Notes under the pieces: model-generated
The model's input: the letters and a program-made list of their open reading frames with translations, nothing else
The model's database searches: none
What the model was told of the DNA's origin: nothing
Made by a program: the position numbers and the translations under genes
DNA from: an uncultured Clostridium sp.
Lineage (GTDB): Bacteria > Bacillota > Clostridia > Lachnospirales > Lachnospiraceae
Assembly: GCA_947644195.1 (NCBI GenBank)
Contig: CANRZB010000010.1
Span: 1 to 64,000, forward strand
Direction: 5' to 3'
DNA length: 64,000 nt
Part shown: positions 50,969-53,623 of the stretch, one piece after another
How the letters are laid out: every line of letters begins with the position of its first letter
Position numbering within the stretch: the first letter of the stretch is position 1

Positions 50969-53623
50969 ATGGAAAAGGAAGCAGGACAGAAGCCCAAGAA
51001 GCATATTTGTACAGGTCTTCTGGCCCATGTAGATGCGGGCAAGACGACATTATCGGAAGGGATATTGTATTCTGCTGGTGTGATCCAGGAAATTGGAAGG
51101 GTAGACAACCAGAATACCTTTCTGGACCATGACGCCGTGGAGCGGATGCGGGGAATTACCATTTATTCCAGTCAGGCGGTTTTCGATCAGGGGGATACTC
51201 GGATTACGTTGGTTGATACACCAGGTCATGTGGATTTTTCTGCGGAGATGGAACGGGTATTACAGGTTTTGGATTATGCGATTCTCATTATCAGCGGATC
51301 TGAGGGAATCCAGAGCCATACTGAAACATTATGGCAGCTTTTGGATCGCTATGATATTCCCGTTTTTCTATTTATCAACAAAATGGATCAGCCAGATACG
51401 GATCCACAGAAAATATTGCAGGAATTGCGCCAGAAATTATCGGATGCATGTACGGATTTTGGGACAGATCCAGTGATTCGGATGGAAGCAGCTGCGATGT
51501 GTGAAGAAACTTTGCTGGAAACTTTTCTGGAGACGGGAGCAGTGTCAGAGGATGAGATTCGGCGGCTGATCTGGGAGCGGAAATTGTTTCCATGTTATTT
51601 TGGATCTGCCCTGCGTATGGAGGGTGTTGTGGAATTTCTGCAGGGTTTTGCGGAATATACATCTGCACCTGAATACCCGGAAGATTTTGGGGCTGTGGTA
51701 TATAAGATTACAAGAGATGAGCAGGGAAACCGTCTGACCCATTTGAAAATTACCGGAGGCACGTTGTGTACCAAGCAGGTATTACATGGCGTCCGAAAAC
51801 AACAGGGAAACGACAGCGATGAGGAGGAAAACTGGTCAGAGAAGGTGCATCAGATTCGTATCTATTCCGGGGAACGCTATGAGACTGTCATGGAAGCGGC
51901 AGCCGGGACGATTTGTGCGGTGACCGGCTTAAGCAATACCTATCCCGGAGAAGGGCTTGGTGTGGAACAGGGGACAGAGCCTCCGGTATTAGAGCCGGTT
52001 CTAACCTACCAGATTCGTCTGCCAGAGGGATGGGATGCTAGCCGTGCGATGCCATTTCTGCGCCAATTGGAGGAGGAAGAGCCGGAACTGCATATTGTCT
52101 GGGAGGAGACCACAGGGGAGATCCATGCCAAGATCATGGGTGAAATGCAAATGGATATCATTAAGCGTCAGCTCTGGGAACGTTTTCGCATGGATGTGGA
52201 GTTGGATGCCGGGAGTATTGTATACAAGGAAACAATTGCGGAACCTGTGGTAGGAATCGGTCATTTTGAGCCACTGAGACACTATGCGGAGGTTCATTTG
52301 CTGCTTGAGCCGGGCGAACCGGGGAGCGGATTGCAATTTGAGACTAGTTGTAGTGAAGATATTCTTGCAAGAAATTGGCAAAGACTGGTACTGACCCATC
52401 TTGAGGAAAGAACGCATCGGGGAATACTGACGGGTTCCGCTATTACGGATATGAAAATTTCTGTGGTATCTGGTCGGGCCCATCCCAAACATACCGAGGG
52501 GGGAGATTTCCGGCAGGCAACATATCGTGCTGTTCGCCAGGGATTGCGCAGTGCGGAAAATGTTTTGCTGGAGCCATATTATTCCTTTCGACTGACAGTT
52601 CCATCGGACCGGATGGGACGTGCTATGACAGATGTGGAGCGAATGAGTGGCAGATTGGATGCCCCGGATACCCAGGGAGATATGGCGGTTCTTACCGGAA
52701 TTGCCCCTGTGTCAGAGATGTGGGAATATCATCGGGACCTTTCCGCCTATACCGGGGGGACGGGACGACTATCCTGCCAGATTTTTGGGTATCTGCCCTG
52801 TCACAATGCAGAAGATGTCATTCGGGAGATCGGATATGACCCGGATCTGGACCTGGGCCAGCCAGCAGATTCCGTATTTTGTTCCCATGGATCCGGTTTT
52901 ATCGTACCATGGAATGAGGTGCCGGAGCGGGCTCATGTGGAGAATGACTGCCTGATTGGGGAAGAGGTAACACAAAGGAGACAGGAGCAGGAAGTCTATG
53001 CAGCATTATCGGCAGCGGAGCGGCGCAGGCAAGGTTATGTGGAGGATTTTTCGATCGGAGAGGAGGAAATCCATTCCATTTTGGGGCGTATGAGTGCGAC
53101 GAAACGTCAGGAAAAGCGTGGGTGGAAGAAACAGCGGCGGACGATTACGGCAGAGACCAGTCATTCTGCTAAGACAGCGTCAAAAATCCGGGAAAAGTAT
53201 TTGCTTGTCGATGGATATAATATCGTGTTTGCCTGGGAGGAGTTAAAAACACTGGCAAAAGATAATATTGACGCTGCTAGGGATCGCCTGATGGATATTT
53301 TGTGTAATTACCAGGCGTATTGTGGTATGACCCTGATTTTGGTTTTCGACGCCTATAATGTCCGGGGCGGGATTGGCAGGATGATGGACTATCATAATAT
53401 CCATGTGGTTTATACCAAAGAGGCGGAAACAGCAGATCAATATATTGAGAAGCTGGCGCACCGTATGGGTAGGGATTATGATGTAACCGTGGCGACTTCA
53501 GATAATGTAGTACAGTTAATTATTCTTGGGCAGGGGTGCAAATTATGGTCCGCCGGAGATTTCGAATTGGAGGTGCAACGGATTGAGGAGCGGATTGCGG
53601 AGGATACGAAACGGATGTATTAA
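50969..53623 (+). CDS. TetM/EF-G-like translational GTPase fused to C-terminal YacP/Rae1-type NYN nuclease domain
   Basis: GTPase motifs AHVDAGKTTLSE, VDTPGHVDF, NKMD; C-term YLLVDGYNIVFAWEEL...LVFDAYNV...ETADQYIE...VATSDNVVQ. Confidence 0.88.
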   Translation: MEKEAGQKPKKHICTGLLAHVDAGKTTLSEGILYSAGVIQEIGRVDNQNTFLDHDAVERMRGITIYSSQAVFDQGDTRITLVDTPGHVDFSAEMERVLQVLDYAILIISGSEGIQSHTETLWQLLDRYDIPVFLFINKMDQPDTDPQKILQELRQKLSDACTDFGTDPVIRMEAAAMCEETLLETFLETGAVSEDEIRRLIWERKLFPCYFGSALRMEGVVEFLQGFAEYTSAPEYPEDFGAVVYKITRDEQGNRLTHLKITGGTLCTKQVLHGVRKQQGNDSDEEENWSEKVHQIRIYSGERYETVMEAAAGTICAVTGLSNTYPGEGLGVEQGTEPPVLEPVLTYQIRLPEGWDASRAMPFLRQLEEEEPELHIVWEETTGEIHAKIMGEMQMDIIKRQLWERFRMDVELDAGSIVYKETIAEPVVGIGHFEPLRHYAEVHLLLEPGEPGSGLQFETSCSEDILARNWQRLVLTHLEERTHRGILTGSAITDMKISVVSGRAHPKHTEGGDFRQATYRAVRQGLRSAENVLLEPYYSFRLTVPSDRMGRAMTDVERMSGRLDAPDTQGDMAVLTGIAPVSEMWEYHRDLSAYTGGTGRLSCQIFGYLPCHNAEDVIREIGYDPDLDLGQPADSVFCSHGSGFIVPWNEVPERAHVENDCLIGEEVTQRRQEQEVYAALSAAERRRQGYVEDFSIGEEEIHSILGRMSATKRQEKRGWKKQRRTITAETSHSAKTASKIREKYLLVDGYNIVFAWEELKTLAKDNIDAARDRLMDILCNYQAYCGMTLILVFDAYNVRGGIGRMMDYHNIHVVYTKEAETADQYIEKLAHRMGRDYDVTVATSDNVVQLIILGQGCKLWSAGDFELEVQRIEERIAEDTKRMY

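What the first reader, a model, noticed from the sequence alone, without database searches (positions are those of the whole stretch)
50969..53623. TetM-like A-site GTPase fused to a YacP/Rae1-type NYN endonuclease
The N-terminal ~720 aa are EF-G/Tet(M)-like; the C-terminal ~150 aa keep the NYN acidic residues (VDGYN, VFDAYN, TADQYIE, TSDN). Established: Rae1 (YacP) cleaves mRNA in the ribosomal A site and Tet(M)-type proteins bind near the A site. Inference: one polypeptide may couple ribosome rescue or drug displacement to mRNA cleavage.
Basis: partly seen in the sequence, partly recalled or inferred. Interest (0 to 1): 0.82.

Follow-up and report, generated by a model that had tools for sequence, protein, structure and literature searches.

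The report
Ribosome GTPase fused to mRNA-cutting enzyme
One long gut-bacterium protein joins a ribosome-binding motor protein, usually mislabelled as tetracycline resistance, to an intact mRNA-cutting enzyme; the join was noted once in 2015 without experiments, and here it appears to be the standard form this bacterial family uses in place of the separate enzyme Rae1.

Summary
Window 50969-53623 (+) is one uninterrupted 884-aa ORF: an EF-G-type GTPase (residues about 10-656), a disordered linker (about 657-742) and a complete YacP/Rae1-type NYN domain (743-884). Every catalytic-type NYN residue checked, and nearly every GTPase motif residue, is invariant in 62 fused homologues.

It is not a freak. 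The fusion is the usual YacP form in the host's family and is widespread in Clostridia. Its existence was published in one sentence (Atkinson 2015, PMC4342817), as 'Tet proteins of ten clostridial species', with a guess at antibiotic resistance.

New here: (1) the fused NYN is the only YacP in this genome, and the usual yacP slot between rlmB and a sigH-like gene is empty, so it looks like the resident Rae1; (2) the domain-IV tip is a conserved GRAHxKHTEGGDFR, unlike TetM (Pro509 becomes Lys) or EF-G, and NCBI's tetracycline models fail by wide margins, so the common 'TetM/W/O/S' label is unsupported; (3) an unfused sister GTPase exists, paired with a stand-alone NYN in same-family genomes but without any NYN in some others.

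Most likely it is a housekeeping, GTPase-delivered A-site mRNA endonuclease replacing free Rae1. Function is untested.

The parts
50969..53623 (+). Fusion gene: EF-G/Tet-type translational GTPase + linker + YacP/Rae1-type NYN RNase, 884 aa
50953..50960 (+). Shine-Dalgarno-like GAAGGGAG, 8 nt before the ATG
   Evidence: read by eye
50996..51661 (+). G domain, residues 10-231; AHVDAGKT, RGITI, DTPGH, NKMD, GSA motifs
   Evidence: Pfam PF00009; motif residues checked invariant in 62 homologues except S213 (S/A)
51686..51940 (+). Domain II (residues 240-324; PF22042 just under its cut-off)
51992..52207 (+). Domain III (residues 342-413)
52214..52555 (+). Domain IV (residues 416-529)
52472..52513 (+). 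Domain-IV tip loop, residues 502-515 GRAHPKHTEGGDFR; family-specific, replaces TetM GLYYSPVSTPADFR and EF-G GSYH-VDSSE-AF
   Evidence: column-by-column comparison with fused, unfused, TetM, TetO and EF-G sequences
52562..52807 (+). Domain V (residues 532-613)
52808..52936 (+). C-terminal extension of the GTPase, residues 614-656, with SVFCSHGSGFIVPW motif; also the C-terminus of the unfused GTPases
52937..53194 (+). Charged linker, residues 657-742; pLDDT below 50 over 677-739; H656-to-L745 spacing 68-153 aa in homologues
53195..53620 (+). NYN_YacP (Rae1-type) RNase domain, residues 743-884
53667..54338 (+). Downstream gene trmO (tRNA methyltransferase O), 43-nt gap, possibly cotranscribed; not found as a neighbour in relatives

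Best explanation
A chromosomal housekeeping protein that works as a GTPase-delivered form of the ribosome-associated mRNA endonuclease Rae1. The EF-G-shaped part recognises ribosomes with an accessible A site and places its family-specific domain-IV tip at the decoding centre. The tethered NYN domain then cuts the mRNA in or beside the A site, and GTP hydrolysis releases the factor. The resulting truncated-mRNA ribosome can be taken up by tmRNA, which this genome encodes. Shown: the fusion, conserved GTPase and nuclease active-site residues, the absence of any other YacP, the empty canonical yacP slot, and a non-TetM tip. Inferred: ribosome binding, the site and mode of cleavage, the order of events, and hand-over to tmRNA.
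For: Single ORF with both domains. All listed NYN catalytic-type residues invariant in 62 homologues. The fused NYN is the only YacP in the 97.5%-complete genome. The order RNase III-like (mini-III) - rlmB - sigH-like is kept with no room for yacP, whereas a class relative has rlmB - yacP - sigH. In the host family 264 of 299 genomes carry a YacP, nearly always one copy; of 150 listed copies 133 lie in open frames of 800 aa or more and 10 in frames of 220 aa or less. Fused NYNs and the same-family/order stand-alone NYNs form one supported clade, 98/90. Domain-IV tip nearly invariant in fused proteins and largely so in unfused sisters. tmRNA present. Literature: B. subtilis Rae1 cleaves mRNA in the ribosomal A site (PMC12320835; PMC6613710).
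Against: No experiment on any fused protein was found. Unfused GTPases without any NYN exist (seven genomes plus one truncated case; Ligilactobacillus salivarius plasmids), so the GTPase can work without the nuclease. Thirty-four of 299 family genomes have neither part, so the function is dispensable. A few genomes carry both the fusion and a stand-alone YacP (e.g. G621), so replacement is not universal. Gene neighbours give no functional hint.
Confidence: 0.55

Rival explanations
1. It is a tetracycline ribosomal-protection protein that gained an RNase, giving a new resistance mechanism (the suggestion in Atkinson 2015 and the name given by public annotation).
For: Closest solved relatives by sequence are TetO and TetM, about 240 bits. 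Public annotation calls several fused relatives TetM/TetW/TetO/TetS family. Same overall EF-G-like fold.
Against: Scores 399 against a cut-off of 775 for tet_protect and 267 against 1100 for TetM/W. The tip loop is not TetM-like: Pro509, which sits in the drug site (PMC8161019), is replaced by an almost invariant Lys and the flanking tyrosines are gone. Core-genome-like distribution among genera of the family rather than a sporadic one. Among 1316 plasmid records with a match only 2 cover at least 80% of the protein.
Confidence: 0.12
2. The protein acts in rRNA or tRNA maturation or ribosome assembly: the GTPase docks on pre-ribosomes and the NYN domain trims precursor RNA.
For: NYN_YacP was first proposed to act in rRNA/tRNA maturation (cited in Atkinson 2015). 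YacP is classically next to rlmB and mini-III, both rRNA enzymes. The window gene is followed by trmO.
Against: The one studied YacP (Rae1) cuts translated mRNA. The trmO neighbourhood was not found in 52 fused loci, although only about 1.5 kb of flank was available for most. A highly conserved domain-IV tip fits a function at the decoding centre of a mature ribosome better.
Confidence: 0.15
3. Two partly independent functions on one chain: a stress or fidelity translational GTPase (EF4- or EF-G2-like) joined to Rae1 mainly for co-expression or ribosome localisation, with no mechanistic coupling.
For: The linker is long, poorly conserved and predicted disordered, with H656-L745 spacing of 68-153 aa. 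The GTPase exists without NYN in some Clostridia and in L. salivarius, and the NYN exists without the GTPase in many.
Against: The fusion is kept across many families of the class. In host-family genomes lacking the fusion, GTPase and NYN still tend to occur together (8 both, 4 NYN only, 1 GTPase only, 34 neither; Fisher p 1.3e-5, not corrected for phylogeny; one of the eight, G537, comes from the class draw). At class level this independent link is weak.
Confidence: 0.18

Closest known systems
Clostridial 'Tet + YacP-like NYN' fusion proteins (Atkinson 2015, BMC Genomics 16:78, PMC4342817)
   Same: Same domain order and taxonomic neighbourhood; this window is a member
   Different: The paper reports ten species and proposes a resistance mechanism in one sentence; here the distribution, the Rae1 replacement and the non-Tet tip are added
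Rae1/YacP of Bacillus subtilis (PDB 5mq8/5mq9)
   Same: NYN domain 59/133 identical, same acidic residues (Rae1 D7, N10, D53, E78, D81, S103, D104)
   Different: Rae1 is a free protein next to rlmB; here the domain is tethered to a GTPase and the rlmB-sigH slot is empty
TetM/TetO tetracycline ribosomal-protection proteins
   Same: EF-G-like five-domain GTPase, nearest solved sequence relatives
   Different: Different domain-IV tip, far below family cut-offs, extra C-terminal extension, NYN domain
EF-G
   Same: Overall fold and GTPase motifs
   Different: About 25% identity, different domain-IV tip; separate EF-G-type ORFs are present in the genome

Membership tests
Rae1/YacP NYN endonuclease | NYN_YacP domain above Pfam cut-off | tested here: met
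   159.6 bits against 24.6; PDB YacP match 2e-27
Rae1/YacP NYN endonuclease | Conserved acidic catalytic-type residues | tested here: met
   D748, N751, D794, E818, D823, E827, S844, D845 invariant in 62
Rae1/YacP NYN endonuclease | Genomic place between rlmB and sigH (usual, not strictly defining) | tested here: not met
   slot empty in own genome
Rae1/YacP NYN endonuclease | Ribosome-dependent A-site mRNA cleavage | not testable with these tools
   needs biochemistry
Tetracycline ribosomal-protection proteins (TetM/O/W/S) | NCBIfam curated score | tested here: not met
   399/775, 267/1100, 226/1420 bits
Tetracycline ribosomal-protection proteins (TetM/O/W/S) | Domain-IV loop with the proline that occupies the drug site | tested here: not met
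   K507 in place of TetM P509 (role of Pro509 from PMC8161019)
Tetracycline ribosomal-protection proteins (TetM/O/W/S) | Confers tetracycline resistance | not testable with these tools
   needs MIC test
EF2-family translational GTPase | G domain motifs and domains II-V | tested here: met
   domain II score 24.4 against 27
Clostridial Tet-NYN fusions of Atkinson 2015 | EF-G/Tet-like GTPase with C-terminal YacP-like NYN | tested here: met
   the paper's own sequence list (additional files) was not read

The most novel reading that the evidence does not exclude
Across much of Clostridia the free A-site nuclease Rae1 has been replaced by a GTPase-gated version: a translational GTPase subfamily with its own decoding-site tip that delivers an mRNA-cutting domain to ribosomes, i.e. 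a single-polypeptide stalled-ribosome cleavage factor widely misannotated as tetracycline resistance.
Probability: 0.45. Interest if true: 0.72.

Novelty: new member of a known kind. Interest (0 to 1): 0.5.

Why it matters
If right, a very common protein of gut Clostridia, often listed as a resistance gene, is instead a basic mRNA-surveillance factor. That would correct resistome counts and give a natural, testable link between a translational GTPase and A-site mRNA cleavage. It would also help with an open question for Rae1, namely how a small nuclease finds and enters an A site.

Tried and rejected
Reading the fusion as a rare accident or assembly error: rejected, hundreds of homologues. Tetracycline-resistance membership: fails the tested features. 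Strict co-dependence of the unfused GTPase and NYN: held in the host family but broken at class level, where eight genomes have the GTPase without a NYN, one of them truncated at a contig end. Conserved operon partner: metK, glf, trmO and trpS were sought beside 52 fused loci with none found; the GTPase and NYN positive control hit all 52. Whether stand-alone NYNs of the family come from fission or pre-date the fusion: unresolved, AU p 0.29 for fused monophyly and 0.49 for stand-alone monophyly. RNA leader before the gene: no Rfam hit there. Fold search against PDB gave EF-G structures only, as expected. The Leroy 2017 and Condon 2018 Rae1 papers are not in the held library, so I could not check whether they mention the fusion. 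One search was a failed script, repeated.

Full report
Observation. The ORF at 50969-53623 translates without interruption to 884 aa, with an RBS-like sequence 8 nt before the ATG. Pfam finds the EF-G set of domains from residue 10 to 613 (domain II just under its cut-off) and NYN_YacP at 745-882. The AlphaFold model from a 62-sequence alignment (mean pLDDT 78.7, pTM 0.60) has a folded GTPase, a low-confidence stretch 677-739 and a folded NYN domain. PDB searches return TetO, TetM and EF-G for the whole protein, YacP for the NYN part and EF-G by fold.

Conservation. Among 62 fused proteins (the others 46-89% identical to this one) the residues checked in the P-loop, switch and NKxD motifs are invariant, as are D748, N751, D794, E818, D823, E827, S844 and D845 of the NYN domain. 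Both halves appear to be under strong constraint, so neither looks like a passenger.

Distribution. A scan of 299 genomes of the host family finds a YacP domain in 264, nearly always one copy. Of the 150 copies listed by the tool, 133 lie in open frames of 800 aa or more and 10 in frames of 220 aa or less. In 392 genomes of the class 253 have it; of 150 listed copies 76 are in long frames and 63 in short ones. The GTPase search over the same family gives 260 genomes with both domains, 4 with NYN only, 1 with GTPase only (weak, E=3e-67) and 34 with neither. The 2x2 tables were compiled from the printed lists.

Replacement of Rae1. The window genome has no second YacP. Its rlmB lies between an RNase III-domain (mini-III-like) gene and a sigH-like sigma factor (202 bits, slightly under the SigH cut-off), with no room for yacP. 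In a class relative (L012) the order is mini-III, rlmB, yacP, sigH. Some host-family genomes still have stand-alone YacP beside rlmB, for example G007 and G024. G621 has both the fusion and a stand-alone copy beside rlmB.

Unfused sister GTPase. Eight host-family genomes with stand-alone NYN (G024, G054, G059, G099, G161, G217, G242, G537) and one of the same order (G556) have a separate GTPase, about 650-706 aa where complete and 42-46% identical to this one, at another locus; the G099 copy is only 541 aa in open frame. It ends just after the SVFC...W motif that precedes the linker here. In the GTPase tree the fused proteins form one clade (SH-aLRT 97), the unfused ones its sister (88), and TetM/TetO stand far away; long branches are present and this was a quick tree. 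In the NYN tree fused and same-family/order stand-alone domains share a clade (98/90) apart from the other clostridial Rae1 sequences. Eight class-level genomes have the GTPase and no NYN; one is truncated in a 65%-complete genome. L. salivarius plasmids carry a NYN-less relative, 48% identical, whose tip reads GKASNVHTVGGDFR. So the GTPase can act alone, which limits how far co-occurrence can be used as evidence of coupling.

Not a Tet protein by the features tested. The tip of domain IV, which in TetM carries Pro509 in the drug site (PMC8161019), is GRAHxKHTEGGDFR in the fused family and largely so in the unfused sisters; TetM/TetO have GLYYSPVSTPADFR and EF-G has GSYH-VDSSE-AF. NCBIfam tetracycline models score 399/775 and 267/1100 bits. 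Public annotation nevertheless uses the TetM/TetW/TetO/TetS name for fused relatives, for example in Agathobacter rectalis.

Mechanism. Rae1 of B. subtilis cuts mRNA in the A site (PMC12320835; PMC6613710). An EF-G-like body brings a domain-IV tip to the decoding centre (established for TetM and EF-G). The simplest reading is that the GTPase delivers or holds the nuclease at a ribosome with a free A site, after which tmRNA (present) can rescue it. The linker is long enough to allow many geometries, so no docking claim is made.

Known or new. The fusion itself was published in 2015 in one sentence (PMC4342817). Full-text searches found no other mention, but the library lacks the main Rae1 papers. 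The added points are the scale of the distribution, the empty yacP slot, the distinct tip, the unfused sister and the case against the resistance label.

Noticed in passing
window 48158-48253 (+): SAM riboswitch (RF00162) upstream of metK (48435-49631).
   Followed up: no
window 55798-56646 (+): Protein with a PocR sensory domain joined to an MCP signalling domain: a soluble chemoreceptor-like sensor.
   Followed up: no
window 47164-47931 (+): 255-aa lipoprotein-like ORF with no Pfam match.
   Followed up: no
L145 2983-4917 (Ligilactobacillus salivarius plasmid NZ_CP117984.1): NYN-less relative of the GTPase (48% identical) next to an rpsN (S14) gene on a large plasmid, flanked by transposases; its domain-IV tip is altered.
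   Followed up: partly
L056 (G068:C12:21845-23653): A 644-aa GTPase 34% identical to this one, with a tet_protect score of 453 against 775: perhaps another unnamed translational GTPase branch, in a genome with a stand-alone NYN in a 260-aa frame.
   Followed up: no
G326, G331, G359, G375, G477, G500, G624: Class relatives with the GTPase but no YacP domain at all; where open frames were listed they are 645-671 aa, i.e. unfused.
   Followed up: partly
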